Shown here: one piece after another, positions 14,844-39,300 of the stretch
Position numbering within the stretch: position 1 is the stretch's first letter
Layout: every line of letters begins with the position of its first letter
Origin: a virus
Reading direction: 5' to 3' (one strand)
IMG/VR virus record: IMGVR_UViG_3300021964_000091
Location: 1 to 54,428 of that record
Length of the DNA stretch: 54,428 nucleotides
Translations under genes and position numbers: made by a program
The notes under the pieces: model-generated
Told to the model about the DNA's origin: nothing
Databases searched by the model: none
Seen by the model: only the letters and a program-made list of their open reading frames with translations

Positions 14844-15137
14844 ATGAGTAGAATCTTTGAAGGTAATGTTAGCTTAGTCGCTAACACCAAGGGTGAGATT
14901 GCCCTGAAGCGCGACCTAAACGGCGCTTGGAATTCAACTAACGCTAAGGAACTGTATGCCAAGGCTCAGGAACTTAGCAAGGCGAAGAAAATGCCATTAC
15001 ATAAATGGTCTTTCTTCAAGGCTGACGGTGGAACTGATGTTCTACTAATGGCGGACAGATACGGTAATCCTAGGATTACAATCCTACCGCCTAAGGCTGA
15101 GGGTGCTACTAAGTCCAAAGTGACTAAGTTAGCGTAA
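14844..15137 (+). CDS. Small early protein, paralogue A
   Basis: 97 aa, ATG after CTGGAGG. It is a paralogue of the 96-aa protein at 16090: shared N-terminal IxEGNVS, NTK, KxDxNG, a central AKK, a RxGxP motif and the C-terminal TKSKxxKLA. Charged, alpha/beta-looking, no membrane segment. As first gene behind the early promoter it is likely made early and in quantity. The family is not recognised by name; a small DNA-binding or host-takeover protein is possible, but not shown. Confidence 0.75.
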   Translation: MSRIFEGNVSLVANTKGEIALKRDLNGAWNSTNAKELYAKAQELSKAKKMPLHKWSFFKADGGTDVLLMADRYGNPRITILPPKAEGATKSKVTKLA

Positions 15138-16089: not shown

Positions 16090-16380
16090 ATGGCTAAGAT
16101 TTACGAAGGTAATGTATCTATCTTTAAGAACACTAAGGATAAGATCGTTGTTAAGGCTGACCCTAATGGTCAGTTCAATGCTGATTCAGTTGATGCTCTT
16201 GCAAAAACTATGACTGAGATTGGTACTGCTAAGAAGTGCGAGGTAAACTTCTTCATACCTGACACTAATACTAGTGACTTGAAAGCAATGCTTTTAGTCA
16301 ATCGTTGGGGTCAACCGTATGTAGCATTCTTACCTAACGGTACTACTGCAACTAAGAGCAAGATTGAGAAACTTGCTTAA
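16090..16380 (+). CDS. Small early protein, paralogue B
   Basis: 96 aa, ATG after an excellent AAAGGAGG. Paralogue of the protein at 14844 with conserved ends (IYEGNVS and TKSKIEKLA), NTK, KxDPNG and RWGQP in between. The two copies flank the candidate origin, and each is followed by a hairpin terminator, so each appears to be expressed separately. No family name recognised. Confidence 0.75.
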   Translation: MAKIYEGNVSIFKNTKDKIVVKADPNGQFNADSVDALAKTMTEIGTAKKCEVNFFIPDTNTSDLKAMLLVNRWGQPYVAFLPNGTTATKSKIEKLA

Positions 16381-16923: not shown

Positions 16924-17099
16924 GTAAGACTGCATTGAAACTTTTCATGCTACGGCATTCGAAAGGTGGAGCGTTAGTGAAAGACAGTGAAGGCAATCCG
17001 CTGTATTTCCACGACAAGATGATTGCCAAAAGAAGCAGGAAGGATAACCAAGTTGTTACCTATGGCCCTGACCATCGTAAGTTTAAAGGAGGTGAATGA
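16920..17099 (+). CDS. Small basic hypothetical protein
   Basis: 59 aa from the ATG at 16920, which overlaps the previous stop (ATGA); an earlier in-frame ATG at 16863 lies inside the previous gene. Sequence (KLFMLRHSKGGALVKDSEGNPLYFHDKMIAKRSR...VTYGPDHRKF) is basic and carries a short beta-hairpin-like core. It ends overlapping the AAA+ ATPase start. Function unknown; possibly belongs functionally to the ATPase operon. Confidence 0.7.
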   Translation: MSKTALKLFMLRHSKGGALVKDSEGNPLYFHDKMIAKRSRKDNQVVTYGPDHRKFKGGE

Positions 17100-18091
17100 T
17101 GCGAGCCACGTTAATGAAACAAACAATTAAATCTTTGTTCCCTACACAAAGAACAATGGCTATCGAAGGTAGCCCCGGTGGTGGTAAGACTACCATCTGT
17201 GAAGAAGTTGCCAAGGAATTGCAGGTAGGTTTCATCGAGAAACATATGCCTACAATGCTAGTGGAGGACTTCGGTATCATGTATCCCAATGGGGATGACA
17301 TGTTACACTACAAACTACCTGACTGGTATCCGTCAGATGACAGAACGGATATACCTGACACAGGTATCTTGTGTTTCGATGATAGAAACCAAGCCAATGC
17401 AGACTTGCAGAAAGTATTGGCTAACATCTGTCAAGCACGAAACCTACACGGTAAACCACTGAAGAAAGGTTGGATGGTTGTCTCGACAGGTAACCGACAG
17501 TCTGACAGGGCAGGTGCTAACCGTGTTCTTTCTCATCTGCGTAACCGTGAGACTGTATATGAACTAGAGACACACCTTGATGACTGGTGTTCTTGGGCTA
17601 TCGACCATGGTGTCAAGCCTGAGGTTATCTCGTTTATTCGTTTCCGTCCTAACCTGTTACATGACTTTGATCCACAGCGTGACCAAAACCCTACACCACG
17701 TTCATGGGTAGAGGGTGTATCCAATGCCATTGGTATTGTGCCTGTTGATGCAGAGTATGAAACATTCAAGGGTGCAGTCGGTGAAGGTGCGGCGGCAGAG
17801 TTCGTTGGATTCGTGAAGATATACCGAAAACTACCGAACCCTGACAACATCATCATGAACCCTACAACATCTGAAGTTCCTGATGACCCTGCTACGTTGT
17901 ATGCACTGTCTGGTGCTATCGCTGAACGTGCAACTGTCAACAACTTTGAGCGTGTTTGTACCTATGCCGAACGTATGCCACCTGAGTTCAGTGTTCTTAG
18001 TGTCTCGTATGCTAGCCGGAAGAACCCTGACTTGGCTACTACCCAAGCGTTTACGAAGTGGGCGGTTAACCATCAAGATGTATTGTTCTAA
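17099..18091 (+). CDS. MoxR-type AAA+ ATPase
   Basis: 330 aa from ATG 17099, 6 nt after GGAGG (ATG 17096 is also possible). Walker A is GSPGGGKT at 24-31; Walker B is ILCFDD near 90-95 with Asp-Asp where Asp-Glu is usual; sensor 1 Asn in VVSTGNR near 132; an Arg-rich SHLRNR segment follows. This is the MoxR/AAA_5 class that works as a chaperone with VWA partner proteins, remodelling protein complexes. The VWA partner is encoded at 19356 in the same operon. Stop overlaps the next gene (TAATG). Confidence 0.85.
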   Translation: MRATLMKQTIKSLFPTQRTMAIEGSPGGGKTTICEEVAKELQVGFIEKHMPTMLVEDFGIMYPNGDDMLHYKLPDWYPSDDRTDIPDTGILCFDDRNQANADLQKVLANICQARNLHGKPLKKGWMVVSTGNRQSDRAGANRVLSHLRNRETVYELETHLDDWCSWAIDHGVKPEVISFIRFRPNLLHDFDPQRDQNPTPRSWVEGVSNAIGIVPVDAEYETFKGAVGEGAAAEFVGFVKIYRKLPNPDNIIMNPTTSEVPDDPATLYALSGAIAERATVNNFERVCTYAERMPPEFSVLSVSYASRKNPDLATTQAFTKWAVNHQDVLF

Positions 18092-18519
18092 TGGGATACA
18101 GAAGTAACGTCTGTATTGCTATTGCCTTTGACAGTGTTTCCAAGATGCAATCCTTCCTAACGGCTAGGAAGATTAATGGTACTTGGAAGCACTCTGACTA
18201 CGCATCACTTGATGAGTGGACAGTAGGGCATGGTGATAACTTTGGCATTCTTTGTTTCGAAGCAACGGATGTCAAATGGTATGACGATTATGAAGATGTC
18301 AAATGGTTCAAAGGTATCAGGGAAGATGCCGTTGAAAACTTTGCGGCAAATGCAAAAGAACTACGAGTTGGTGAAGATACCAACGATGTAGAGGAGGAAT
18401 GGTATGGCGAAGATGACCGCCTTGCTGATGTCCTCAACGACTATGTCTACATGAATCGATACTATGTGAAAGACATAGAAACTAAACCTATGAAGGAGGT
18501 TTTCAATGAAACTAAGTGA
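18091..18519 (+). CDS. MGYRS-type conserved phage protein
   Basis: 142 aa. Begins MGYRSNVCIAIAF, a signature of a small phage family widely seen but without a known role; the middle (WYDDYEDVKWF) is acidic and aromatic. TAATG coupled to the AAA+ ATPase and overlapping the next gene by 14 bp, so it belongs to the ATPase/VWA operon. Possible substrate recognition or immunity role is not supported by any motif. Confidence 0.75.
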   Translation: MGYRSNVCIAIAFDSVSKMQSFLTARKINGTWKHSDYASLDEWTVGHGDNFGILCFEATDVKWYDDYEDVKWFKGIREDAVENFAANAKELRVGEDTNDVEEEWYGEDDRLADVLNDYVYMNRYYVKDIETKPMKEVFNETK

Positions 18520-19366
18520 TAAGGCACTGCTAGTGCAACTGAATGTATCACAGTGGACTGCTCGTAAGTATGACAAGAGAGCCACTGAACAGGTTGCACA
18601 ACAAAACAATACTGCCATTGGTGCAGGCAGGTATAACAAATCGCTGTTACCTATGAATGATTATCTCGATAATGTTCATAAGAAAACAACAGCAATCAGA
18701 GCAAAGTATTATGCCAATACCCTACCATGGGGTATCGAAGGCACAATGCTACTACCATCTGCAAACTATCTGAACTTCATGACTGAGTTCAGGAAAGAGA
18801 AAGCAGAATGGCAACAACTTGTGGATACATTTTGGAATGAGTATCCACGATTGAAGCAAGACGCACAACGATACTTGGGTAATCTATACAACGCAAGTGA
18901 CTACCCAATGCTTCACGATATACAGCGTAGATTCAATATGGATTTGGCTGTATTCCCTGTGCCATCTAACGACTTCCGTGTTCAGATATCAGACGATGAG
19001 TTATCTCGTATTCAATCTGATGTTGAAGCACGAGTTCAGGATGCGGCACAACAAGCGATGAAGGAAGCATGGCAAAGGCTGTATGACAAAGTCAAACATA
19101 TGGCTGAGAAACTTGCTGATCCCAAGGCTGTGTTCAGAGATACATTGGTTGAGAATACCAAGGAAGTATGTGCTGTCTTATCAAGACTTAACTTTGCTGA
19201 TGACCCTAACTTGGAAGCCTTACGACAACAAGTTGAGAGTTCATTGGCTAACAACCACCCTGATAGTCTGCGTAATGACCCTGACTTGAGACGTGATAAA
19301 GCGGCTGAAGCCAAGGCAATCATGGACAAGATGGGTGCATTTATGGGAGGTAACAATGGAAGTTGA
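18506..19366 (+). CDS. Partner protein of the MoxR/VWA pair (DUF3150-like pattern)
   Basis: 286 aa, ATG after AAGGAGG. N-terminal LVQLNVSQWTARKYDKRATEQVA and LPWGIEGTMLLPSANYLNF are motifs I recall from proteins encoded between MoxR ATPases and VWA proteins in phages and plasmids, often labelled DUF3150; the label is from memory. Mostly helical, with a long C-terminal helical region (SDVEARVQDAAQQAMKEAWQRLYDKVKHM). Probably a third subunit of the same complex. Confidence 0.7.
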   Translation: MKLSDKALLVQLNVSQWTARKYDKRATEQVAQQNNTAIGAGRYNKSLLPMNDYLDNVHKKTTAIRAKYYANTLPWGIEGTMLLPSANYLNFMTEFRKEKAEWQQLVDTFWNEYPRLKQDAQRYLGNLYNASDYPMLHDIQRRFNMDLAVFPVPSNDFRVQISDDELSRIQSDVEARVQDAAQQAMKEAWQRLYDKVKHMAEKLADPKAVFRDTLVENTKEVCAVLSRLNFADDPNLEALRQQVESSLANNHPDSLRNDPDLRRDKAAEAKAIMDKMGAFMGGNNGS

Positions 19367-20456
19367 GAAGCGAATCAGTAAAGCAAAGACTGCATTGATT
19401 CTTGAGCATCCGTTCATTGGTAGTGTTGCACTTAACATGCCAATGTCCATTGATAACTCTGTCCCTACTGCGGCTACCAATGGTAAGCGTGTGGTATTCA
19501 ACGAGGATTTCTGCAATGGTTTGAACGATGAGGAACTTAAGTTCCTTGTCGCTCACGAATGTATGCACCCTATGTTGGAACACAATTTCCGTAGAGGTGA
19601 GAGAGACCCACGCAAATGGAATCAAGCGGCTGACTATGTCATCAACAAACTACTGACTGATGAGGGTATCGGTAAGATGCCACCTCAAGGTTTGCTTGAT
19701 GACAACATATACAATGCAGGTAAAGGTACTAGCGATGGTATCTTTAATATCCTACCTGAATCACAGGATGGTGAGAATGATCCACTAGATAACTGTGAAG
19801 ATGGACAGGGTAGTCCTGCTGAACAAGCACAACAACAAGCAGAATGGAAAGTCAAAGTAGCACAAGCGGCACAAGCCGCTAAGATGATGGGCAAACTCAG
19901 TGCTAATCTTGAACGACTAGTCGGTGAGATACTTACACCCAAGGTTGATTGGCGTGATGTCTTACAGAGATTTGTTGTCAAGTGTAGGTCTGACCAACGC
20001 TCATGGGCTAGACCGAATAGACGATTCATATCTCAAGGTTTGTATTTACCTAGTGTATCGGGCGAAACGCTAGGTGAAATTGCTTTTGCTGTCGACTGTT
20101 CAGGCTCTATTGGTCAAGATGAAATCAACCAATATGCCAGTGAGATAGTCACAGTATGGCAAGACCATAGACCGACTAAGGTTCACATCATCTACTTTGA
20201 CAGTGAAGTCTGTCACTATGATGAGTTCGGTCAAGACGATGAACCAATAATCAAACCGCATGGTGGAGGTGGCACTGCGTTCAGTCCTGTATTCAGATAC
20301 ATGGAGGAACACGGTATCAACCCTGTTGCCTGTGTGTTTCTAACTGACCTTTGCTGTAATGACTTCGGTGATGCACCTGACTACCCAGTCCTATGGGTGT
20401 CAACACATTCAGACGAAGCACCATTCGGTGAGGTTGTAATGATGGAAGGTAAATAA
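19356..20456 (+). CDS. Metallopeptidase-like and VWA domain protein (DUF2201 type)
   Basis: 366 aa from ATG 19356, 5 nt after GGGAGG; a longer in-frame start at 19293 lies inside the previous gene. The N-terminal domain has HECMH at 67-71 (HExxH zinc site) followed by WNQAADYVIN, as in the DUF2201 N-terminal metallopeptidase-like domain. After an acidic/Gln-rich linker (135-175) comes a VWA domain with a MIDAS motif DCSGS at 247-251, GGGGT near 303-307 and TD at 330-331. MoxR-VWA pairs act as metal- and ATP-dependent chaperones. Here the N-terminal zinc site keeps its key residues, so protease activity is possible. Confidence 0.85.
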   Translation: MEVEKRISKAKTALILEHPFIGSVALNMPMSIDNSVPTAATNGKRVVFNEDFCNGLNDEELKFLVAHECMHPMLEHNFRRGERDPRKWNQAADYVINKLLTDEGIGKMPPQGLLDDNIYNAGKGTSDGIFNILPESQDGENDPLDNCEDGQGSPAEQAQQQAEWKVKVAQAAQAAKMMGKLSANLERLVGEILTPKVDWRDVLQRFVVKCRSDQRSWARPNRRFISQGLYLPSVSGETLGEIAFAVDCSGSIGQDEINQYASEIVTVWQDHRPTKVHIIYFDSEVCHYDEFGQDDEPIIKPHGGGGTAFSPVFRYMEEHGINPVACVFLTDLCCNDFGDAPDYPVLWVSTHSDEAPFGEVVMMEGK

Positions 20457-20665
20457 TGGGTAATGTTAAACAACTCTGCATTGAAGCGGAGTCATTGTTG
20501 GTTACATGTCTCGATGAATGGGGCATGACCAACGAACAAGCCTTTGCAAAGATACGCAAAGACTTAGGGGCTATGGCAGAAAGTCATGTCCGTGAACTTG
20601 TAACCAAATGGAACGAAGGAGATAACTATGGCAACAGTACGATTCAGCCAACAACTAAAAGATAA
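20456..20665 (+). CDS. Small hypothetical protein in the VWA operon
   Basis: 69 aa, TAATG-coupled to the VWA gene and overlapping the next by 38 bp. Helical sequence (CIEAESLLVTCLDEWGMTNEQAFAKIRKDLGAMAESHV). No motif recognised. Its coupling suggests that it is made together with the VWA complex. Confidence 0.65.
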   Translation: MGNVKQLCIEAESLLVTCLDEWGMTNEQAFAKIRKDLGAMAESHVRELVTKWNEGDNYGNSTIQPTTKR

Positions 20666-21302
20666 TATCCGTAGTAATGCTCGGAGATTATATAAACAAA
20701 CAATAGATAATGCTAAGAAAGATGTGCCTACACATTGGGCAGACAAGATATATGAATGTCTTTTTCCTGCTGATGTTATTGCTAAGTTCAATGCACTACC
20801 TGATTACGCATTGAGATCAAACGATAGTATATCGTTTAGTGGTTTTGAACATGCACCTAATGATGTGTATCAAACTGCCGAACATAAGATAGATACATGG
20901 ACTTGTAGTGATGTTACATTAACCTTCAGTAGTCCTCGTAGGTTTCCTCATAACCAACCTAAAGAAGTTATGGGGTTTGAAACAGGATACAGGTCTAAAG
21001 CAGACTTCAATGATACCCGATGGGATTGGTTGAAACCTGAGTTTAAAGAATACACTCGCAAGATATTTGAAGCCGAAGCAAAGGAAGCAAAGTTTCTTGA
21101 TGGTGTAGATAAACTCACACAAACATATACCACATTGGCACCTGCCTTGAAAGCATGGCCTGCACTGTGGGATTTACTAGATGATGATGTCAAAGAACGT
21201 CACAAGAAAGTAGTAGAACGTGGTACTAAAGATGTAGGTGAACTTGATGTTGACCTAAACGATATGACTGCGGCTGTAACTTTCTCAAAACTAACACGCT
21301 AG
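20628..21302 (+). CDS. Hypothetical phage protein (Nmad5-like at low confidence)
   Basis: 224 aa, ATG after GAAGGAGA. Begins TVRFSQQLKDNIRSNARRLYKQTI and ends with a helix plus VDLNDMTAAVTFSKL; the middle has KAWPALWDLLDD. The helical N-terminus with an RxxI...A segment, the WPALWDLL block and the final short motif resemble proteins placed in the Nmad5 group (nucleotide-modification-associated), but I cannot confirm it. No catalytic residues can be named. Lies in the AAA+/VWA operon. Confidence 0.6.
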   Translation: MATVRFSQQLKDNIRSNARRLYKQTIDNAKKDVPTHWADKIYECLFPADVIAKFNALPDYALRSNDSISFSGFEHAPNDVYQTAEHKIDTWTCSDVTLTFSSPRRFPHNQPKEVMGFETGYRSKADFNDTRWDWLKPEFKEYTRKIFEAEAKEAKFLDGVDKLTQTYTTLAPALKAWPALWDLLDDDVKERHKKVVERGTKDVGELDVDLNDMTAAVTFSKLTR

Positions 21303-21311
21303 GAGGTGTAA

Positions 21312-22223
21312 ATGTATACATGGTGGACGAGTGATAGGTCTCTCAATACCTATGAAGAAATGCTAGCGGCATTTAAAACAGCACGAAACCCTTTAAAAGG
21401 TAAACCAGTTAACCATAACTGGCGACTGTATATGCTAGAAGATAACAAAACAATCAGGATAAATTGTGAAGGCTATGGTAGTGAACCACTAGCCGACGTA
21501 ACACCTGACAATATCATAACCTTTATTGCTAGGGATAATCATATGTATACGATGGCACAGACTTATGTGTCCTCATTTTATAGATGGTTTCCGTTTCTAG
21601 TTCAGCGACATCGTAAAGGTTTATATCGTATTGGTTCATCCAAGAAGATAGATAATGCAATGAGTAATCTCAAAGAAGGTGATAGTCATTACACTCAATT
21701 TAATAAAGTGATGCACGATATGCCTTCATACTTCAAGGGATTGCAGTTCAACTTGTTGACAGGTGATTGTCTTAACCAGAAACCAGATGACAAGTTCATC
21801 GAGCGCCCTGCACAGCGTAAAGAATGGCGTAGACATCTTACCCAATTCAAGAAAGGTTTGAAAGCAAGGGCTAAAGTTCATGCACTTGATGGTATTGCAC
21901 AAGAAGTTCTGAACGAATCACAGGCTCAGAACAGGTGGGATAGGAAGAAACCTGATTGGTCAGCAGATGAATGGCAAGACTTGTTAGAGAATAGTATCCG
22001 TAAGAATGTATTTCCTAGAGAAATACTCAAGGGTTTTATTCAAACAACAATGAGTTCATATAACCCTGCAATACCTAGCCCCAAAGAAATTATGGATACC
22101 GTAGATAAAGTCATGAATGACTTAAGTATCCCAATGCGTAGACGATTCAATGTGTTCGAGCAAGAAGGACACGATGAACAGAAGTATGAGTCTTATGCAG
22201 GCGGTTACAAAGAGGTATCTTAA
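21312..22223 (+). CDS. Hypothetical protein of the AAA+/VWA operon
   Basis: 303 aa, ATG after AGGAGG. Large polar protein with many aromatic residues (MYTWWTSDRSLNTYEEML, YVSSFYRWFPFLVQRHRKGLYRIG). A basic helical stretch follows (AQRKEWRRHLTQFKKGLKARAKVHA). No known domain seen. In the same operon as the MoxR and VWA genes, directly upstream of the HslV-like gene. Could be a substrate, scaffold or inhibitor for that complex. Confidence 0.65.
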   Translation: MYTWWTSDRSLNTYEEMLAAFKTARNPLKGKPVNHNWRLYMLEDNKTIRINCEGYGSEPLADVTPDNIITFIARDNHMYTMAQTYVSSFYRWFPFLVQRHRKGLYRIGSSKKIDNAMSNLKEGDSHYTQFNKVMHDMPSYFKGLQFNLLTGDCLNQKPDDKFIERPAQRKEWRRHLTQFKKGLKARAKVHALDGIAQEVLNESQAQNRWDRKKPDWSADEWQDLLENSIRKNVFPREILKGFIQTTMSSYNPAIPSPKEIMDTVDKVMNDLSIPMRRRFNVFEQEGHDEQKYESYAGGYKEVS

Positions 22224-22224
22224 T

Positions 22225-22695
22225 ATGACTGTTCTAGTATGGGATGGTTCTAGTCTTGCAACTGATAGACAAGCCAATGATGGTTCCGCTAAATGGGAAT
22301 CATCAAAGGCATGGTATGTCACCATTGATAATGAAGTCTGTATTGTGTCGGGAGTGGGGCTACTCGATGACATAATAAAGATGCGTGAATGGATCAAACA
22401 AAGTGGCATACCTCAGGAGTTCCCTGCGTTAACAAGTAAGTCAGAACTTATTGTGGTGCGTAGGGACACAGGGCTGTGGTTGTATGAAGGGATACCTTTC
22501 CCTGTACATTGCGGCTTTAACGCTCGTGCCTTTGGTCACGGTAAAGACTTTGCATATGGTGCGGTTGCTATGGGTGCAAATGCACAGCAAGCAGTCGAAG
22601 CATCTAACATGTTTTGTTTACATTGTGGTAAAGGTGTGGAAGTATTTAACTTAAATGGAGAAGGTAATGAAAAAGAAAACAACAAAGAGGGATAA
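22225..22695 (+). CDS. HslV/proteasome-like Ntn hydrolase
   Basis: 156 aa from ATG 22225; the open frame runs further upstream but that part overlaps the previous gene. After Met removal the N-terminal Thr of TVLVWDGSSLATDRQAND would be the nucleophile. Asp13 and Lys27 fall where HslV has Asp17 and Lys33, and GVGLLDD matches the conserved Gly turn. The C-terminal half has GHGKDFAYGAVAMGANAQQAVEAS, the ASGS/YALGAMxxGA-type pattern of HslV-like phage proteins. It probably folds as a beta-type proteasome subunit. Active as a protease only if it oligomerises; partner ATPase would be the MoxR or a host protein. Confidence 0.75.
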   Translation: MTVLVWDGSSLATDRQANDGSAKWESSKAWYVTIDNEVCIVSGVGLLDDIIKMREWIKQSGIPQEFPALTSKSELIVVRRDTGLWLYEGIPFPVHCGFNARAFGHGKDFAYGAVAMGANAQQAVEASNMFCLHCGKGVEVFNLNGEGNEKENNKEG

Positions 22696-23101
22696 GGTTA
22701 ACGCCTATATCTCTAAGCATCCTAATGCTACTGCAACACAAGTAGCAAAGGCAACAGGAGTATCTTATAACTACTGTTGGTCTGTTATGAAAACACCTAA
22801 CAAAGAAGTTAGGAAGGAGGTGGTGTCTAATAAGACGCCTAGGTTTCGTAGCGAAGTCCTCTTTACAGCAGAACAACTCGTCAGCAAAGATAGAGAGAAA
22901 GAACATGGGAATGCCAGTGACAACTGGCAGGCTATTAGTGGCCTTTGGTCTAGTTATCTTGGGTATCATATACCTGTTGAATCAGTTCCTATAATGCTAC
23001 TGCTAATCAAAGTAGCAAGGCTGCGTCAGAACAAGACAAACACAGACAACTATGTTGACATATGTGGATACTCTGCATTGGCGGCTGAACAAGTGAGGTA
23101 A
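22667..23101 (+). CDS. HTH plus DUF6378-domain protein
   Basis: 144 aa from ATG 22667, 6 nt after GGAG. N-terminal part (KVNAYISKHPNATATQVAKATGVSYNYCWSVM) is a winged-helix-like HTH. The C-terminal part (LFTAEQLVSKDREKEHGNASDNWQAISGLWSSYLG, MLLLIKVARLRQNKTNTDNYVDICGYSALAAE) matches the DUF6378 pattern common in phages, of unknown role but related in layout to MazG-like helical folds. Overlaps the Ntn hydrolase by 29 bp and ends 3 bp before polymerase. Confidence 0.8.
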   Translation: MKKKTTKRDKVNAYISKHPNATATQVAKATGVSYNYCWSVMKTPNKEVRKEVVSNKTPRFRSEVLFTAEQLVSKDREKEHGNASDNWQAISGLWSSYLGYHIPVESVPIMLLLIKVARLRQNKTNTDNYVDICGYSALAAEQVR

Positions 23102-23104
23102 AGG

Positions 23105-24979
23105 ATGGATATCATAACCATAGATTTTGAAACTTATTATGACCGAGAGTTCTCGCTGTCTAAGATGACAACCGAAGCATACATTCGGGATGATAGGTTT
23201 GAAGTCATTGGTGTAGGTATAAAAGTTAATAACCATCCTACCGATTGGTACAGTGGTAATGATGTGGGCAAGTTCCTTAAGTCTCTTGATTATTCAGACA
23301 AGGGGATACTTGCTCACAACTGTGTGTTCGATGGTGCAATACTATCGTGGAAGTATGGTATCAAACCTAAGTTTTGGTTAGATACTTTATCTATGGCTAG
23401 ACCTTTTCACAATGCAACTGTGGGAGGTTCACTCAAAGCCTTAGTAAATCACTATGGTATTGGTAAGAAAGGGGATGAAGTTATCCAAGCCCTAGGTAAA
23501 AGGCGTAAGGATTTCACACCCGAAGAACTAGATAGGTATGCAAGTTATTGTGTCAACGATGTTGACCTTACCTATAAGTTATTCAAGATTCTTGCGAAGA
23601 AGTTTCCACCATCTGAACTCATGGTCATTGACCAAACCATGAGGATGTATACCGAACCAACAGTAGAATTAGATAGTGAGGTGTTATCCTCGCATCTTGA
23701 GCAAGTAAAAGCAAACAAACAGAAACTTATTGCTGACCTGTCGCTCAATGGTTTGAGTCAGGAGAGAGTCAAGAAGGCTCTGATGTCTAACCAAATCTTT
23801 GCGAAGTTACTACAAACAGTAGGAGTAGAACCCCCTACTAAGATAAGTCTACGCACAGGCAAGGAGACCTTTGCGTTTGCTAAAACAGATAAGGAGTTCA
23901 CTGCCTTACTAGAACATCCTGACGTGCGTGTGCAGAATCTCGTGGCGGCGAGGCTCGGCACCAAGTCCACAATAGAGGAGACCCGAACCGAGAACCTTAT
24001 TAAAGTATCGGAGCGAGGTCGCCTACCTATTATGCTTAATTATTATGGGGCACACACAGGTAGGTTTAGTGGTGGTGACAAACTCAACTTGCAGAACCTA
24101 CCCCGTAACGGTGCTATTCGTAAGTCAATCACTGCCCCATTGGGTGAGAGTATGATTGCTTGTGATTCATCACAGATAGAAGCACGAATGGTTGCTTATG
24201 TATCGGGTCAAGAGGATTTACTAGAAGCATTCCGTGAAGGTCGTGATGTGTATAGTGAGTTTGCAAGTGAAGTATATGGCAAGAAAGTGACGAAAGATGA
24301 CAAGGTAGAACGCTTTGTTGGTAAGACCTGCATACTAGGATTAGGTTATGGTATGGGTCACGTTAAGTTTCGTAACACTCTTGCTTTGGGTATGGGTGGT
24401 ATGTCGGTACAGATCGACGAGAACGAAGCACAAAGGATTGTAAACTTATATAGGAATAAGAACCATAAGATTGCTTCCTTTTGGAATAGATGTAACCACT
24501 CATTATCAGAGATTGTAGCAGGCAGAACTGGGCAACTATGTGACATTGTAAGTTATGACGCTGAAGGTATTGTGTTACCTAATGGATTACGACTTACATA
24601 TCCTGCGTTGCGTAGAGGTGATGACGGCTATGAATATATCAATGACGCAAGAACATTCCGTAAGTTAGTACATAAAAGAATTATGACTGGCGAGCAGATT
24701 GATATAGACTGGACAAAAATATACGGTGGTAAAGTAACAGAGAACATTGTTCAGGCACTTGCTCGTATAGTTATTACAGAGCAGATGGCGTCTATTGGTA
24801 GACATTACCACGTTGCGTTTCAGGTTCATGATGAGATTATCATCACGGCCCCGGACGAAAAGCTGACACACGCACAGGAACTTGTTCTCAGAAAGATGTC
24901 GACTGCCCCAACATGGGCACCAACATTACCTGTTGCTTGCGAACTAGGTGTCGGTAAAAATTATGGAGAAGCTAAATGA
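23105..24979 (+). CDS. DNA polymerase, family A
   Basis: 624 aa. N-terminal 3'-5' exonuclease: Asp7-Glu9 (IDFET), NCVFDG near 72, and YCVNDVD near 148. Polymerase motif A is DSSQIEARM with Asp354, motif B is RFVGKTCILGLGYG with Lys407 and Tyr415, motif C is VHDEI with Asp576. At the position of E. coli Phe762 it has Leu411. Length is typical for phage PolA without the 5' exonuclease. The gene is coupled (ATGA) to a small gene downstream. Replicates the phage genome with the primase-helicase at 30081. Confidence 0.95.
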   Translation: MDIITIDFETYYDREFSLSKMTTEAYIRDDRFEVIGVGIKVNNHPTDWYSGNDVGKFLKSLDYSDKGILAHNCVFDGAILSWKYGIKPKFWLDTLSMARPFHNATVGGSLKALVNHYGIGKKGDEVIQALGKRRKDFTPEELDRYASYCVNDVDLTYKLFKILAKKFPPSELMVIDQTMRMYTEPTVELDSEVLSSHLEQVKANKQKLIADLSLNGLSQERVKKALMSNQIFAKLLQTVGVEPPTKISLRTGKETFAFAKTDKEFTALLEHPDVRVQNLVAARLGTKSTIEETRTENLIKVSERGRLPIMLNYYGAHTGRFSGGDKLNLQNLPRNGAIRKSITAPLGESMIACDSSQIEARMVAYVSGQEDLLEAFREGRDVYSEFASEVYGKKVTKDDKVERFVGKTCILGLGYGMGHVKFRNTLALGMGGMSVQIDENEAQRIVNLYRNKNHKIASFWNRCNHSLSEIVAGRTGQLCDIVSYDAEGIVLPNGLRLTYPALRRGDDGYEYINDARTFRKLVHKRIMTGEQIDIDWTKIYGGKVTENIVQALARIVITEQMASIGRHYHVAFQVHDEIIITAPDEKLTHAQELVLRKMSTAPTWAPTLPVACELGVGKNYGEAK

Positions 24980-30080: not shown

Positions 30081-32936
30081 ATGAACACGTTGGAGTTTCT
30101 TCAGCGAGTCCTGCCGGACGAAGGATACTATGTTACTACTGTCATCAACCCTAATGGGAGACAGCAAGGATTCTTCAACACGGTAGAGGAACTCGCAAAA
30201 ATATGTGAGAGATTAGATAAGACAAATAATAATACTTACTTTGCTATCTCCGCATTTAGAGAAAAGGGTAATAGAAAACAGGATAACGTCAGGGCTACCA
30301 AGGTAGTAGCTATTGATGTTGACTGTGGTGAATCAAAACCATTTCCTTCTTGGAAGGAAGGGCTTGTAGCACTAGGTAAATTTGTAGATGAACTGAGTTT
30401 ACCTAAACCTATGATAATCCATTCGGGTAATGGGCTACATGTATACTGGGTATTAGAAGAAGAACTAGAACCCGAAGAATGGAAACCTCTAGCCGAAGCT
30501 ATGAAGCAGGCGGCTATCTCAAAAAAGTTTGAAATCGATGCAGGACTTACCGCTAATAGTGCGTTGGTCTTACGTCCTGTAGGAACACACAATCCTAAGA
30601 ACGGCAACGAGGTGAAGTTGTTGGTGGATGCTGAGCCTGTCAAAAGTTTGACACTCAAGGATAAGCTATCTTATTACTACAAAGCACCCGCTGCAGCTCA
30701 CGAAGGTCACACTCGTGACAACACATTGTTAGACAACTTAGCAGTTAAGAAAGAGTTTCCTCCTGCTGTTGGGTCTGTTGTTGCTAGTAAGTGTAAACAG
30801 ATTGAATGGGCTGTCGATAACCAAGACAAAGTAGATGAACCATTATGGTATGACTTAATCGGAGTCGCCGCATACTGCGTTGATCCTGAGAACACAGCGT
30901 TAGAATGGAGTAAAGGTCATACTAAATACAGTGAGAAGGATACCATACAGAAACTTACTCACTGGAGAGAGTCCGCTACTGGCCCGGCAACATGTCAGAA
31001 GTTCGAGAATGATAGACCGAATGGATGCCGTGGTTGTAAATACAAAGGCAAGATTGGATCACCTGCTAGATTAGGTGTTCAATATCAAGAAGTAGCTGTA
31101 TCACAGGAAGCACCTGATACAGATGCAAACTCTATCCCAATTCCAAAACCATTCAAACGTACTAGAGATGGTATCAAAGTTACCATTGATGACACTGATA
31201 TAGATGTCTGTAAGTTTGATATATATCCTGTAGCTTATGGTTATGATGAATCATTAGGCTATGAGACTGTTAGATTCCACTGGCATAGAACACACATTGG
31301 ATGGACAGAACTTGTTTTACGACAAGCGTACCTAACAGAAGGCAACCGAGAATTTGCTACAGCAATAGCAGATCAAGGGATAGTGTTATATAACAAAAGA
31401 CAAACGGAGTATTTTCAGCTTATGTTACGATCATATATGGACGAGCTGAGACAAATCCGTAAGATGACTAACCTGTATTCCACTATGGGTTGGAAAGAAA
31501 AGAACACGGCATTTGTCTTAGGCAACACTTTAATAAGACGCGATGCCGATGGCATTGTGAATGAAGAAACAATTAACCTTGCGTCTACAGTTCAAAGACA
31601 AGGCGCAGAGTTATACAATCTCAAGGGTTCATTAGAACAGTGGATTGCACTCACCAGCATACTAGAGAAAGGACATTTGTACACACATATGTTTGCACTA
31701 GGTGTTGGATTCTCTGCACCACTTTATAATTTTACTGGACTCAAAGGTTTGACTGTGTCCCTTTACGGCCCTACCGGAGGTGGTAAAACCCTCGCACAGT
31801 ATTGGGCGCAGTCAATTTATGGTAACCCTGACAAGCTACATTTTGCGGCTAAGTATACGCAGAATAGTTTGTTCACTAGGCTAGGGACTTACGCCAACTT
31901 ACCTCTGACTATCGATGAGGTAACTATGATGAACGATAAGGAAGTCGGTGACTTCTGTTATTGGGTATCACAAGGTAGAGATAAGGCTAGGCTTAACCGT
32001 AATGCAGAGGAACGTGATGCTAAGACATGGGCTACACCTGTTATAGTATCCACCAACAAGTCTCTACAAAGTAAGCTGATTGCTTCTGGTCTGGATACAG
32101 ATGCACAGATGGCTAGATTACTAGAACTTACCATCCCTGCTACACCTATATTCACTAGAGGAACAGATGTTGGTAAAAAAATATACGAGTCTATCCATGC
32201 AAACTACGGTCATGTAGGTAGAATATTTCTAAAGAAGTTAGTAGAGATGGGCGAGGAAGGTATATCCGCCGTTATTGCTGAAGCATCACAGAACTTTAGA
32301 AAGAAATATAAAGCTAACTTCTCAGGTCAAGAACGGTATTGGGAACAAGCAATCATCTTATCAGACTTAGCTATGTCATTAGCTGATGAATGGAATCTAA
32401 TACAGTTTGATTATCACCAGTCGACTGAGTGGGTATTGTCTCAGATTGGCGCTATCCGTAGAACAGTTCAAGAGAATCAGGTTGATGCGTTTGATCTGAT
32501 AGCAGAATACATGGCTGACTCTGCTGATTCACAAGTAACAATCATGCACACATCAGGTCAGAAACCACAGCCTGATTTCAGTCGTATGCCTAGAAACGAT
32601 ATCCGTGTACGTCTTGATGTCTATCGTAAATCAGCGGCAGACCCGTTTGATAAAGGCACGATGATGATAGACCGTACTCATTTCCGTAAGTGGTTATCAG
32701 TACGCGGAGCTGACTACAAGACATTCAAACAGGAACTTACTGAGGAGAATGCAGTTGCTACTCCTAAGTCAGAGAAAGCATCAATGGGTAAAGATACACC
32801 AGTTAAACTAGCACAGACTTATGTGATTGGTTTAAACCTGACTCACCCACGCTTTCAAAACTTATTAGAGAATGCTGATGTAGCGGCTGATGACTTAGCT
32901 TATGGTCAATTACAGGTGGTGAAGAATGATTCTTGA
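30081..32936 (+). CDS. Primase-helicase (AEP primase plus DUF927-type ATPase)
   Basis: 951 aa. N-terminal AEP primase: DVD at 79-81 (VVAIDVDCG), the SGNGLHVYW motif at 115-123 with His120, and LRPVGTHNPKN near 190. The middle has a Cys-rich stretch (CQKFENDRPNGCRGCKYKG) that may bind zinc. The C-terminal DUF927-like P-loop domain has Walker A GPTGGGKT at 563-570 and Walker B LTIDEVTMM. It combines priming and helicase in one protein, as in many phages that lack separate ones. Provides replisome function with PolA. Confidence 0.85.
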   Translation: MNTLEFLQRVLPDEGYYVTTVINPNGRQQGFFNTVEELAKICERLDKTNNNTYFAISAFREKGNRKQDNVRATKVVAIDVDCGESKPFPSWKEGLVALGKFVDELSLPKPMIIHSGNGLHVYWVLEEELEPEEWKPLAEAMKQAAISKKFEIDAGLTANSALVLRPVGTHNPKNGNEVKLLVDAEPVKSLTLKDKLSYYYKAPAAAHEGHTRDNTLLDNLAVKKEFPPAVGSVVASKCKQIEWAVDNQDKVDEPLWYDLIGVAAYCVDPENTALEWSKGHTKYSEKDTIQKLTHWRESATGPATCQKFENDRPNGCRGCKYKGKIGSPARLGVQYQEVAVSQEAPDTDANSIPIPKPFKRTRDGIKVTIDDTDIDVCKFDIYPVAYGYDESLGYETVRFHWHRTHIGWTELVLRQAYLTEGNREFATAIADQGIVLYNKRQTEYFQLMLRSYMDELRQIRKMTNLYSTMGWKEKNTAFVLGNTLIRRDADGIVNEETINLASTVQRQGAELYNLKGSLEQWIALTSILEKGHLYTHMFALGVGFSAPLYNFTGLKGLTVSLYGPTGGGKTLAQYWAQSIYGNPDKLHFAAKYTQNSLFTRLGTYANLPLTIDEVTMMNDKEVGDFCYWVSQGRDKARLNRNAEERDAKTWATPVIVSTNKSLQSKLIASGLDTDAQMARLLELTIPATPIFTRGTDVGKKIYESIHANYGHVGRIFLKKLVEMGEEGISAVIAEASQNFRKKYKANFSGQERYWEQAIILSDLAMSLADEWNLIQFDYHQSTEWVLSQIGAIRRTVQENQVDAFDLIAEYMADSADSQVTIMHTSGQKPQPDFSRMPRNDIRVRLDVYRKSAADPFDKGTMMIDRTHFRKWLSVRGADYKTFKQELTEENAVATPKSEKASMGKDTPVKLAQTYVIGLNLTHPRFQNLLENADVAADDLAYGQLQVVKNDS

Positions 32937-33372
32937 AGCCGCCACTGCAATGATATGTATGGCTCACGCCATATACTTTGAAGCTAGGTCTGAGTCTACT
33001 GCGGCACAACTTGCTGTGGCACATGTAATCTTTAATAGGGTTGAAGACCCTAGGTTTCCTAACACTGTGTGTGAGGTTGTAACCGAAGGATTACGCCACG
33101 GTTCAGGTGTAATGAAAAGACATAAGTGCCAGTTCAGTTTCTATTGCGACGGAAAACCCGAACAAATTTCCGAACAAATAGCATACAGAAAAGCAGAGTT
33201 AATAGCATACTCAGCCTTAGATACTTACGCACAGTATGATATTACTGATGGAGCCACACATTATCATGCTGATTATGTGGCACCTGCATGGGCTACCGCA
33301 GATAGATTTACTAAGACTACTTGTATAGATAAACATTGTTTCTATAGATTAGAAACTACTGCAAATCGCTAG
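32926..33372 (+). CDS. SleB-type cell wall hydrolase
   Basis: 148 aa; last plus-strand gene. The pattern YFEARSESTAAQLAVAHVIFNRVEDPRFPNTVCEVV and KCQFSFYCDG matches the Hydrolase_2 (SleB/CwlJ) family, with the catalytic Glu in FEARSE. The C-terminus has DGATHYHADYVAPAWA, typical of the family. No signal peptide stands out, although residues 1-16 are mildly hydrophobic. It is a second cell wall enzyme, distinct from the GH108 endolysin at 49566. Its 3' end overlaps the opposing 2672-aa gene by 17 bp. Confidence 0.85.
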   Translation: MILEAATAMICMAHAIYFEARSESTAAQLAVAHVIFNRVEDPRFPNTVCEVVTEGLRHGSGVMKRHKCQFSFYCDGKPEQISEQIAYRKAELIAYSALDTYAQYDITDGATHYHADYVAPAWATADRFTKTTCIDKHCFYRLETTANR

Positions 33373-36300
33373 GGTCTATACCATATAGTTGCATTAGATC
33401 ATCGATCTCCTGCCTGATATTCTTAGGCGCAAACTTCTTATATCGTAGGATAGTTGGGTTCTTAGCCGCATTGTATGAACGGTTAGCAGACCTAATGAAT
33501 CCTTTGAACTCAAACTCTGTACCTTTATGGTATCGGTTATGCTCGTTCACATCCTGAATAATTCTGTTCATTTCTGCTACATCATTATTTAATTTAGCTT
33601 TTACATATTGCTGAGTGTAAGCCATCTTAAGTGATTTCACATAAGCATCAGTATGTTTTCCTATCCTAACCACATCATTCTGCAGCGTAGCGATTGCAGG
33701 ATAGAAGCCCATCATACGAGCAATAGCAGTCGTTAATGGTACTTCGTTAGAGATTACATTACCTTTGGAATTGGTAATCCTTCCATCGTTTAGATATGTC
33801 CAACCATCAGCCATACCTCGGACTGCTGATACAGGAGAATCACGCAGGATATCTACAAAGTTTGTAGTGTCATCCTTAAGTCCTAATACTTCAGCACCAT
33901 ACTTAGCTAGTTGACCACCTGTAGCAAACATACCTTGGATACCGTTATATACAGGGCCAAGGAAGTTCTCAGCTTCACGCCATGGGTCTGCACCTGCTTT
34001 AAGTGCGCCTGATAGTGGGATCAAATCACCAAAACCTAGTCGAGTAGATATGGTTGCACCAGTGAATCGGTCTATGAAACCACGCATTAATACTTGTGAT
34101 GACCCCGGATACACACTGTCAAAGAACGTGGCAAGTTCTTTCTCTATGCTTGCCATCTTAATACCGAACATCTGAGCAAGAGTATCAACCAAATCCATTA
34201 GGTCATCTGCAAATGGTAGTCCTTTCAATCCTGATGCAAACAGTAGCATACCTAGGAATATTGCACGTTCCTTAGTAGCCATTCCTCTCATCAACTGAAC
34301 GCTGATAATAACGAATTGTTTATACATAAATACATATTGGAGTACGTTACCACGAGCCATCTCTGGTCGGTTATACATAGCGTATTCACCTTGAGATGTG
34401 TTCACAGCTTTACGTCCAAATTCTGACGCACGTTCCTGTGCTTCAGCTTGTGTAGCACCTGCCGCTAGTTGTCTTTCTCTTTCAAGTCTATAAGCCGCCA
34501 TGAATGTAGTTCTACGGTTCATCTGCTCTGTGTAAGAGAACATAGACATCCATGCTTTAATAGCAGATGCAGTCTTATTACTATTCACACCACCCCTAGC
34601 AGTACCTACTAGTGCATTGAATTGTGCCGCTTGTAGTACGCCTTCTGCTGTAGCATCTCGTAAGGCTATGGCTTCGTCTTCTGATAGACCATGTTTCTGC
34701 TGTAGTTCTGTGTTGTTAGCAACCTCATTAACATAACTATAATTAGCAAGATTCTTATTCCACATATTACCTGATGATCTCATCATGGCTGCTGCCGATA
34801 AAGTCATACCAAATCCACCACCATAACCACGTTTAGGGTTATAGGTACTTAGATAAGGGATAGAGTGGGTTACCATTGAGATGGCGTTAATAGCTGCTGT
34901 AGCTACTGATCCACCCAACTGGAATAAGACAGCAAACAATTTGAAACGAGAACCGACTTCACCTGACAACATATCTTCTGTTGACTGATCGATGTTAGCC
35001 GCGTCAGAGTACCAAGCAAGAAGTCGTTTAGCTTCTTCTCTATAGTTTTCACCTCGGCCTTCAGTCTGTGCTTTTTTAGACTGTCTGGTTCCATCACCAT
35101 TTGCTTTACCATATAGATTAACAGTTTTACTTCTACCTACATCAGCACTGTATTGGTACATAGCTGCATAAGCATCGTATTCTTGGCGAGCAATCTTAAT
35201 TCTTTCAGGGTTACCCTGTCTTTCTGCTCTGAGCATAGCATCTTCAAGACGCTTAAGTTTCTCAGGGTTACCTCTCCACATGCTGTTATCAAGCATGATT
35301 CGATTTAGTTTGTGGCGATAAAAAGTCTTACCGGCAATATGACCTTGAGTCTCAAGATGCTCGGATACACTACGAACTACGTCAGTATCCCATCCTGCTA
35401 CGCCTGAACGTTGTAGGCTACGTCTTGCTCGTTCACCCTGTTTAGTCAAGGCAACAACAATACGCTCACGTTCTTGTGGAGTAATATTAACACTCAATCT
35501 CTGCAATACATCTACGAACTCACTTAGGTTTACTGTGTGAGTCATAGGTTGTGACTGTCTAGCTGTACCAAACTCAGCTTCAAATGTTACTTTAACTTCG
35601 TTTCCGTCGTTATCTAGAACAGTAAACTGTTTACCACCGAATGATTCATCTAAAGCACGTTGAATTTCTCTAGCATCTGCACGACTATTTACTTGGTAGT
35701 AAGGCATAGAACTCTTGTATGCCTCGTCCATATTAACTGCTTTGCCATTAGCCATAGCTTTAACCATGACCTGATACTTACCACGTCTAGTGAATGGTAC
35801 ATATGCACCCATGATAGTACGCTTAGCTAGGAACTCAGCATTAGCATTCTTAACATCTAACAGGTAGATATTCTGGATTGCATTAGTAATATTGTAGGCT
35901 TGGTTCTCACTTAATCCCAACGCATTAAGTCTTTCTAGACCATCAATAATATCTTGGAACTCATCACCTTGGAACTGCTCTGTATTATCAGTGCCTGCTT
36001 TCCAGTCATTAAGTTTGTTTTGATTCCACATTGCACGGTTGATAGCCGCAATAAAGGTCTTAGCTTTCTCAATAGATGCTTCTTTATACTTAAGACCTGC
36101 GCCTTCCTGAACCGCACCTTCTTTATAAAGACGTGTGTATTCATCAATAACTCTACGCAGAGTCTGTATTTCTACAGTAGTAGGAGCGTTACCAGCAGAC
36201 CCAACAACATTTTTAAATCCTTCCAGTGCTTCGTTCTTCTGATCTAATGCAGCACCAAGGTTGGCTTCAAGCACATCAAGTGCAGCTTGGTTTACCGCAG

Positions 36301-39300
36301 CCCTTTGTTCTTGGTAGATACGCCACACATTATCAGTAATAGCAAACGCAGGTTTGTAGACAGAAGGTTGTGTGTTCTCTTGTCCTTCAACAATATCTAG
36401 TACTACTTCAATACCGTTAGTAAATTCATCTCTAGTTACTTCTCCTGCCTGCCTGATTCTTTCAAAAGCATTAGGATCAATAACAATATTTCCGTTAGCG
36501 TCAGCTACAGCAAGGTTAGGCATATCACGAATCATTTGTTCCGTGGTTGCTTTACCTTTAAACAATGCTGCATAAGCTAGTAGTTCACCAGCTTGTTGTA
36601 GTTCTTCAGTAGTAGGGCCTCCACCAAATCCAAACCATTCAGGTGTGTGAGAGAAGGCAGTAAGTTTTTCATACTCAGCATGTAGTCGTTTAACCCTAGC
36701 TGACTGTTGTTGGAAAATCTTAAATACTTCTGAAAGACCTTCACTACGCAAAGCCATATTATCTAGAGTCTGTACTTTCTCTAAGGCTTCACCTAACCAG
36801 TTTGCTAGGTCTCTAGTATTAGTTACATCTTTAGCTCGTTTAGCTAGTTCAGATACACCTGTAAAACTACCATACTGACCTGCTTTCTTATTCAAACCAA
36901 ACTGGCTGAACAATGTAGAAGCTAGGTCAGCACGGTCATCTTCAAGGGAGAAGCGTCCATACATGCTGTCCTGTGTTAGTCTTTCTAAGTTTTTACTTAG
37001 CTGTCGACCATTGACAAAGAATCCGCCACCTGAGCGTAAGTTTCTACGAGATTGACTAATCAGGTACCGGGACATGTCATCACCGAACGTAACCCCAAAC
37101 TTGTTGAGGAAGTTCTTAACAGCAGCCCAAAATCTGGCTACGAAATGTACATCCATATAGGCCGCAGCATCAGCCATTGCTTCTTCAATAGCCTCGTGCA
37201 TATCCATACCTGCTTCCATCTTACGATCAGCAACAGCACGGATATGGCCTTCAGTTCTATAAATATCTCTGAGGATAGCATTGAGCCTTCTGTCAGGCAT
37301 GAATGCTCTAAATCCAAAGTGACCTAGTGTTTCGTGGGCTACAACAAACTGAACCTGTTGCTCAGTTTTAGCGTAGTCAGCAAAGATAATAATCTGGTCA
37401 CCAACTGAGAAACCTACAGCCGGTGTAGTTTCAAAGTCAGGTCGGCTACGCATAGCCCTGTTAAATAACTCAGGGTTAGTTTGTCTAAGTTCTGCCACAT
37501 TCTGAACAACAGTGACAGTTGGTTTAATCTTAAGACCTTTAAGAACCTTGTTAACAATTAATTTAATCTTACCTTTAGGCACAGGGTTTTGGATTACAGA
37601 ACCATCTTCTGCTCTGTAGAAGTTACCATCTTCATCATCAAACGCACCAAACATTTCATCGTCACTCTTACTACGAGTATCCAATGTCATTTCTTCGGCT
37701 TGTCTTAATGCTTCTAGTTGTTCTCTTTCACGCTCAGCAGCTTTAAGTCTTGCTGCTTTCATTTGAGCCTGACGTTCTTTCAACTGTTCTTGGGTATATT
37801 CCTTAGTAGTAGGTACAAGCCTACCATCACCTGACCCTACAAGTTTAAGTTCACCGTTCTCATTAAAGTATTCTTTAAGCTTAGGCCCTCTACCCATACG
37901 ATATTCAGGGTCTGCTTTAGCAAACAACTGGTTAAGCCTAATAATTTCTTTAGAATTTCTACGCTTAATTTGGTTAATTGCTTGATCTCTAATCTGTAGA
38001 TCAATCTGTTTCTCAAGCTCTTGACTTGCAGCAAACTGCACCTGCTCTGAAGTTTCCTCAATAACAGCAGGTTCTTGAACTTGTTCTTGTTCTACCTGAG
38101 CGATTGGTTCTGCTACAACCTCTGCTTGTTTAGCTTTATACCACTTAGGCATTGCTCTCATTGGAGCTTTAATAGCATCTAATAGATTACGCTGAGCACC
38201 AAAGGTTACCCATGCTTTATCCTTACCACGATAAGTTCCTGTAAGATTGTCGTTTAGATTCGCGCCAGCAACAAAGGCTTCATCAATAGCTTTCCATTGT
38301 TTCTCACTAAATTGAGTGTTGTTTATATAAGCTAATGCTCTGTCTCTAATACTAAGACCACCACCTGCGGTTTTCTTACCGAGGTTAGAATCAGTATTAA
38401 ACAGTGCATAATCAAGAATAGTTTCAGCTGCGTATGCAAAAGTGGTTGCATCAGTGGCAGTATCAAAAAAGGTTACCGCTTCCTCTAGTTCTTGTAGAGG
38501 AGTTAGTTCCATATCAGCACGAGCTTTGTCATAAATTTCTTTAGTCTGCTCGTAAGTAATAGAACCACTATTTACTAGCTGTTCAAACTCTTGCCTCTGT
38601 GCAGCAGGGATATCATCAAGTGGGATATCTGTAACACCCATGTCTTCCCATGCTTCATACGGAGAATCGTATGCAGTTACACTAGATACGGCGGCTTCTT
38701 CTTTGACAGCGGGTCTGCTATCCTGTTGCCTTTCTTGTTGTGCTTGATCTGTTGGTTGCGGAGTTTGTTCTTGTTTAGCTCTTTGCTCTGCAACTTGTTC
38801 CGTGATCTGTTCTTGGCTAGCAATCTCGCTCGCTTTCGTTTTTCTGAGTCGCTGAGCTTTCCTACCCGTTGTGGTAGTTGTCTGTTCTCCGGTGTCTCTG
38901 ACTCGAATTGGTTCGCCAGCTTGGGGTTGTTCGCGTACATCCACTTCCGCTGGGCTTCGCTCTTGAACGGCATCTTCACCCCTCCTTAATGTTGTAGCCG
39001 CAGGAGCTACAGGAGCTGCAGGCTCGTCAAAAGGTAGTGTCAGTTGACCAGCGGCTTCTAGTTCAGCGGCAGTTGGTTGTTGTGGTTCTGCAGCGACAGG
39101 TTGTGGCTGTCTCTGTAACCTTCTCAATCCGTATGGAACAGCAAACCCCGGCAGACTTGGCTGCACAGGTTCTCTAGCTGCTGATACCATTGGCATCTTA
39201 AGCTGAGCATTTTCCTCAGCTAATCTTTCATTCTCTGCAATAATCTGTTCGATCCTTGCAGTTTCTAATTCTTTAATCTGTTGTTCTTGACGCTGACGTA

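What the first reader, a model, noticed from the sequence alone, without database searches (positions are those of the whole stretch)
17099..22695. AAA+ MoxR, VWA metallopeptidase-like protein and HslV-like Ntn hydrolase in one phage operon
Seen: overlapping plus-strand genes for a MoxR ATPase (Walker A GSPGGGKT), a 286-aa partner, a protein with both HECMH and a DCSGS MIDAS motif, and, further on in the same direction, a 156-aa protein whose N-terminal Thr, Asp13 and Lys27 match the HslV catalytic pattern. Known: MoxR-VWA pairs are chaperones that remodel complexes; HslV needs an AAA+ partner. Inference: the set could form a phage-encoded unfolding and proteolysis machine, or the Ntn protein could be a dodecameric partner for a host ATPase. 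I do not know of a described phage complex with this combination.
Basis: partly seen in the sequence, partly recalled or inferred. Interest (0 to 1): 0.75.

Follow-up and report, generated by a model that had tools for sequence, protein, structure and literature searches.

The report
Phage remodelling chaperone beside mini-proteasome gene
An uncultured phage carries a conserved three-gene ATP-driven protein-remodelling set next to a small proteasome-like protease gene; both are known kinds of phage protein, and the protease comes and goes while the three-gene set stays, so they are probably two separate devices rather than one protein-shredding machine.

Summary
The sequence observation is right. 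The window encodes a MoxR-clade AAA+ ATPase, a 286-aa protein, a zincin (HECMH) plus VWA/MIDAS protein, and a proteasome-fold Ntn hydrolase with Thr1/Asp13/Lys27; all catalytic positions are conserved across the lineage. The Ntn model (pLDDT 90) aligns its Thr onto HslV Thr1 (Z 17).

The proposed four-part unfolding-and-proteolysis machine is not supported. [quoted passage not shown] The MoxR plus metallopeptidase-VWA pair is published too (N4 gp24/gp25; jumbo phages). In this uncultured phage lineage all four genes keep one order, but 13 of 47 contigs fetched without reference to PPH lack it while keeping MoxR-P286-VWA; the tree needs 4-6 PPH gains or losses. Nine isolate MoxR/VWA phages lack PPH, and seven isolate PPH phages lack a MoxR/VWA pair. 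Conjugative plasmids and a cyanophage carry the trio without PPH. No AAA+ partner has a proteasome-docking tail.

Best reading: a portable MoxR-P286-VWA remodelling machine acting outside virion assembly, plus an optional small Ntn protease. The less-described part is the third subunit (P286) and the trio's sharing by phages and conjugative plasmids.

The parts
17096..18091 (+). MoxR-clade AAA+ ATPase (331 aa), N4 gp24-like
   Evidence: phrog_1297 1e-70; best solved relatives by profile are midasin chains; Walker A K31, Walker B D95, sensor N133, Arg R151 invariant in 74 rows, Walker B acid is Asp (DD) in all 74
18091..18519 (+). 142-aa ORF, accessory, no family match
   Evidence: no Pfam/PHROG/PADLOC match; missing between MoxR and P286 in the closest relatives, present in some others such as L043, L048-L053
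18506..19366 (+). P286, third member of the trio (DUF3150-like helical protein)
   Evidence: 34% identical to a protein annotated DUF3150 in Synechococcus phage MinM2 and 33-40% to plasmid proteins; weak PF11348 match in 4 of 22 members, best E 0.003
19353..20456 (+). zincin metallopeptidase domain (HExxH) fused to VWA domain with complete MIDAS (367 aa counted from 19353), N4 gp25-like
   Evidence: PF13203, PF09967; phrog_1314 3e-103; all ligand positions 88/88
20456..20665 (+). 69-aa ORF of unknown function
   Evidence: syntenic in close relatives
20628..21302 (+). P224, unknown function, retained whether or not PPH is present
21312..22223 (+). P303, unknown function, retained whether or not PPH is present
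22225..22695 (+). PPH-type proteasome-fold Ntn hydrolase (156 aa; Thr1, Asp13, Lys27 after Met removal); facultative
   Evidence: phrog_1040 5e-14; AF2 pLDDT 90; HslV Z 17, model residue 2 aligned to HslV residue 1; catalytic positions invariant
22655..23101 (+). P148, HTH plus DUF6378
   Evidence: PF19905 2e-25
23105..24979 (+). family A DNA polymerase; right-hand border of the slot that does or does not hold PPH
   Evidence: phrog_17 3e-84

Best explanation
Two separable devices lie in one early/replication operon. (1) MoxR, P286 and the zincin-VWA protein form a three-part remodelling chaperone: the VWA MIDAS grips an acidic group on a client, P286 acts as a subunit or adaptor, the MoxR ring spends ATP to pull the client or its complex apart, and the HExxH domain may clip it. 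Shown: co-inheritance of the three genes and intact active sites; inferred: the complex, the client and the cleavage. (2) The Ntn protein is a PPH: a small, compact proteasome-fold threonine protease, exposed by removal of the start Met, working without a dedicated phage AAA+ partner (alone, or with a host ATPase such as HslU). Shown: fold, catalytic residues, gain/loss independent of the trio; inferred: protease activity and oligomer.
For: Trio without PPH: 13 of 47 P286-fetched contigs spanning VWA to PolA lack PPH, confirmed on the ORFs of the slot and in whole records up to 57 kb with five positive controls. The trio tree needs 6 changes of PPH state, at least 4 by well supported branches. 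Trio on conjugative plasmids: all 20 listed P286 matches have the VWA match directly beside them; in all five plasmid regions read the order is ATP-binding protein, P286 homologue, VWA-like; no PPH match in the plasmid collection nor in the two plasmids searched whole. Trio in cyanophage Pra-JY27 without PPH. PPH without MoxR/VWA pair: seven isolate phages. PPH diverges faster than the trio (mean pairwise identity 0.51 versus 0.67-0.70) and its identities correlate least with MoxR's (r 0.54). No HbYX-like tail on any AAA+/VWA/P286 protein. Literature: CbbQ/CbbO shows the VWA-adaptor mechanism with no role found for the AAA+ pore (PMC4660213).
Against: Within this lineage PPH always sits at the same place downstream of the trio, and no PPH-bearing contig that reached the VWA position lacked the trio, so a lineage-specific link is not excluded. 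AAA+ rings can dock without HbYX tails (HslU itself does). PPH-minus records are metagenomic and some are fragments. The P286 model is poor (pTM 0.50), so its adaptor role is a guess.
Confidence: 0.7

Rival explanations
1. One reading: MoxR unfolds clients and feeds them to a PPH ring; one phage unfolding and proteolysis machine with VWA and P286 as adaptors.
For: Conserved order MoxR-P286-VWA-P224-P303-PPH-PolA down to about 40% PPH identity; Thr1 and catalytic residues intact.
Against: Trio kept without PPH in 13 of 47 contigs, on plasmids and in other phages; PPH kept without MoxR/VWA in seven isolate phages; three other genes between; no HbYX tail. MoxR-clade ATPases are known as remodellers, not feeders of proteolytic chambers (established knowledge).
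Confidence: 0.1
2. PPH is a peptidase partner for a host ATPase (HslU or another), degrading host or defence proteins.
For: HslV is among its closest solved folds; PPH found in many unrelated phages without their own partner.
Against: PPH lacks the second helix of HslV (PMC8665760), so the ring and docking surface may differ; nothing here tests binding.
Confidence: 0.3
3. The MoxR-VWA-metallopeptidase pair serves virion assembly and processing of structural proteins (proposal of PMC7824862 for jumbo phages).
For: Published proposal by analogy with an archaeal virus; zincin domain intact.
Against: Conjugative plasmids, which make no virion, carry the same trio; here it sits beside DNA polymerase on the strand opposite to the head and tail genes.
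Confidence: 0.2
4. The trio is an intracellular conflict system like the MoxR-vWA ternary systems of PMC7159879, carried by mobile elements against host or competitors.
For: MoxR plus VWA plus a third protein; mobile distribution.
Against: No PADLOC model covers P286 or VWA, and MoxR gives only weak P-loop matches; no variable effector domain fused to the VWA; strongly conserved, slowly evolving.
Confidence: 0.15

Closest known systems
[quoted passage not shown] phrog_1040
   Same: Compact size, Thr/Ser1-Asp-Lys triad, no propeptide, no second helix, phage-borne
   Different: Here it shares an operon with a MoxR AAA+ gene; that study found no co-occurring AAA+ genes
N4 gp24/gp25 (phrog_1297/phrog_1314) and the jumbo-phage MoxR plus metallopeptidase-vWA pair (PMC4193335, PMC7824862)
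   Same: MoxR ATPase next to a protein with N-terminal zincin and C-terminal VWA, in the early/replication part of the genome
   Different: A third conserved gene, P286, lies between them here and on plasmids; N4 has no recognisable P286
HslV/HslU
   Same: HslV fold and catalytic residues
   Different: No HslU-type partner found beside it; PPH is smaller
CbbQ/CbbO, RavA/ViaA, midasin
   Same: MoxR-clade AAA+ with MIDAS-bearing VWA partner or domain
   Different: No zincin domain described in these partners, to my knowledge; clients differ

Membership tests
PPH (proteasome homolog of phages) | Thr/Ser at mature position 1 with Asp17- and Lys33-equivalents | tested here: met
   80/80 rows for all three positions; model residue 2 aligned to HslV residue 1
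PPH (proteasome homolog of phages) | proteasome fold lacking helix H2, no propeptide, compact C-terminus | tested here: met
   helices only at 47-59, 107-115, 120-130; start Met directly before Thr/Ser; residues 146-156 disordered; definition in PMC8665760
PPH (proteasome homolog of phages) | membership in the published PPH sequence cluster | tested here: inconclusive
   matches phrog_1040 and isolate phage HslV-family proteins, but the published alignments are not held here
PPH (proteasome homolog of phages) | peptidase activity and oligomer | not testable with these tools
   needs purified protein
HslV proper | recognised by curated Pfam models (proteasome family) | tested here: not met
   0 of 23 members match any Pfam family at 0.01
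HslV proper | HslU partner encoded nearby | tested here: inconclusive
   none among the nine operon proteins scanned; host unknown
N4 gp24/gp25-type MoxR plus metallopeptidase-VWA pair | MoxR ATPase and zincin-VWA protein of phrog_1297 and phrog_1314 with intact motifs, neighbouring | tested here: met
Proteasome-type AAA+ unfoldase | C-terminal HbYX docking motif | tested here: not met
   0 of 109 MoxR, 0 of 121 P286, 0 of 120 VWA tails; MoxR ends mostly QDVLF
DUF3150 (for P286) | PF11348 match above the curated cut-off | tested here: inconclusive
   sub-threshold for the window protein (14.6 against 24.9 bits); 4 of 22 members match weakly; homologue annotated DUF3150
MoxR-vWA ternary conflict systems (VMAP type) | variable effector domains fused C-terminal to the VWA | tested here: not met
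   VWA-like domain runs to residue 365 of 367

The most novel reading that the evidence does not exclude
In this phage lineage PPH has been recruited as a lineage-specific proteolytic partner of the MoxR-P286-VWA machine, which would be the first proteasome homologue driven by a MoxR-clade ATPase.
Probability: 0.08. Interest if true: 0.85.

Novelty: new variant of a known kind. Interest (0 to 1): 0.4.

Why it matters
It gives a clean natural test of partnership: phages of one lineage with and without PPH but with the same MoxR machine. It also shows that the poorly understood MoxR plus metallopeptidase-VWA pair, a core gene pair of N4-like phages with unknown function, exists as a three-gene unit shared by phages and conjugative plasmids, which argues against a purely virion-building role and points to a task that both kinds of element need inside the host.

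Tried and rejected
Nucleotide search for close isolate phages: none. Sequence-only Pfam recognition of the Ntn protein: none. Scan of genome contigs with P286: nine pattern matches, none a relative, so no host was inferred. P286 fold: pTM 0.50 and no Foldseek match below E 0.1, so no fold is claimed. A replacement gene in the PPH slot of PPH-minus contigs was looked for; a zinc-ribbon-like ORF occurs there, but L166 has that ORF and PPH together, so it is not a replacement. Literature search for DUF3150 with phage: none. The PPH tree with isolates is too short and long-branched to date transfers.

Full report
WHAT IS THERE. The window is a 54.4 kb linear uncultured viral contig with structural genes mostly on the minus strand and a plus-strand early/replication operon of roughly 14-33 kb. 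The finding's genes are real: MoxR 17096-18091, P286 18506-19366, VWA 19353-20456 and the Ntn gene 22225-22695.

NTN PROTEIN. It matches phrog_1040, 'peptidase HslV family', and 48 isolate phage records at 22-31% identity. An AlphaFold2 model from 23 lineage sequences has pLDDT 90.3; Foldseek's best solved match is HslV at 7e-9 and VIA-align gives Z 17.1 to E. coli HslV over 141 residues, with model residue 2 aligned to HslV residue 1. Thr/Ser2, Asp14 and Lys28 are present in 80 of 80 distinct rows, and of the 88 homologues checked for the start (isolates included) all begin Met/Val(GTG start)-Thr/Ser, 69 with a Shine-Dalgarno-like core, so removal of the initiator would expose the nucleophile. 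The model has three helices and lacks the second one, which is the published hallmark of PPH and RPC (PMC8665760). I therefore file it as PPH, with the caveat that the published alignments could not be used.

MOXR, P286, VWA. MoxR and VWA belong to phrog_1297 and phrog_1314, the families of N4 gp24 and gp25, core genes of N4-like phages (PMC4193335). The VWA protein has a zincin domain and a VWA domain with all five MIDAS positions invariant in 88 rows. The pair with N-terminal metallopeptidase has been described in jumbo phages and proposed to act in virion assembly (PMC7824862). P286 was not found in N4-like phages, but has homologues in cyanophages (34%, one annotated DUF3150) and in 44 plasmid records (33-40% in the best rows). 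In the five plasmid regions read, the order is ATP-binding protein, P286 homologue, VWA-like protein, in three of them just upstream of VirB-type secretion genes; profile searches confirm the three assignments for two of them. All 20 listed P286 plasmid matches lie beside a VWA match. MoxR-P286-VWA is thus a portable trio.

DO THE FOUR GO TOGETHER? In the window's lineage, yes as to position: contigs fetched with PPH show MoxR-P286-VWA-P224-P303-PPH-PolA throughout. That sample was chosen by PPH, so I fetched contigs by P286 instead: of 47 spanning VWA to PolA, 13 have no PPH although P286, VWA, P224 and P303 (and MoxR, where the contig reaches it) are kept. Reading the ORFs in the slot and searching 11 of the whole records, five of them 47-57 kb, with two PPH models found none, while five positive controls rang. 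On a tree of P286 plus VWA, PPH presence needs 6 changes, at least 4 forced by well supported branches. Among isolates, nine MoxR/VWA phages have no PPH and seven PPH phages have no MoxR/VWA pair (one weak P-loop match in Siara). PPH evolves faster than the trio and its divergence tracks MoxR's least. No trio protein ends in a proteasome-docking HbYX motif.

MECHANISM. By analogy with CbbQ/CbbO, where the VWA MIDAS binds the client and the AAA+ hexamer remodels it without a demonstrated role of the pore (PMC4660213), the trio most likely remodels a specific complex; P286 as adaptor and clipping by the zincin are inference. Plasmids make no virions, so a virion-only role is unlikely for the trio; a task shared by incoming phage and conjugative plasmid DNA, such as clearing or rebuilding a host nucleoprotein or membrane complex, fits better but is untested. 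PPH most likely is an independent small threonine protease, alone or with a host ATPase.

NOVELTY. Both parts are known kinds. New here, as far as the literature searched shows: the conserved trio with P286 across phages and plasmids, and a phage lineage in which a PPH gene sits in a facultative slot beside an AAA+ machine, a context which the PPH paper did not find. The one-machine view keeps a small probability, because within the lineage no PPH-bearing contig that reached the VWA position lacked the trio.

Noticed in passing
window 17096-18091, residues 95-96: MoxR of this lineage has Asp-Asp at Walker B (LCFDDRN) in 74 of 74 rows where most other phage MoxR proteins aligned have Asp-Glu; the usual catalytic Glu is replaced.
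   Followed up: partly
window 17096-18091, C-terminus: MoxR ends in QDVLF in 81 of 109 lineage members; an unusually conserved C-terminal tail that is not HbYX.
   Followed up: no
window 14844-15137 and 16090-16380: Two paralogous 96-97 aa genes (about 35-39% identical) upstream of the operon, both kept in relatives.
   Followed up: no
L176, L178, L179: On Burkholderia/Paraburkholderia conjugative plasmids the MoxR-P286-VWA trio lies just upstream of VirB-type secretion genes.
   Followed up: partly
L085 about 9311 and L100 about 8566: A homologue of the window's endolysin-like gene (32926-33372) lies between P303 and PPH (L085) or between P224 and P303 (L100), showing that genes move into this stretch.
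   Followed up: no
L147, L158, L159, L161, L163, L164, L166, L169, after P303: A zinc-ribbon-like ORF (CPxCK...CxCG) follows P303 in many PPH-minus contigs and also in the PPH-plus contig L166.
   Followed up: partly
window 33356-41374 (-): A 2672-aa protein on the structural strand; not identified.
   Followed up: no
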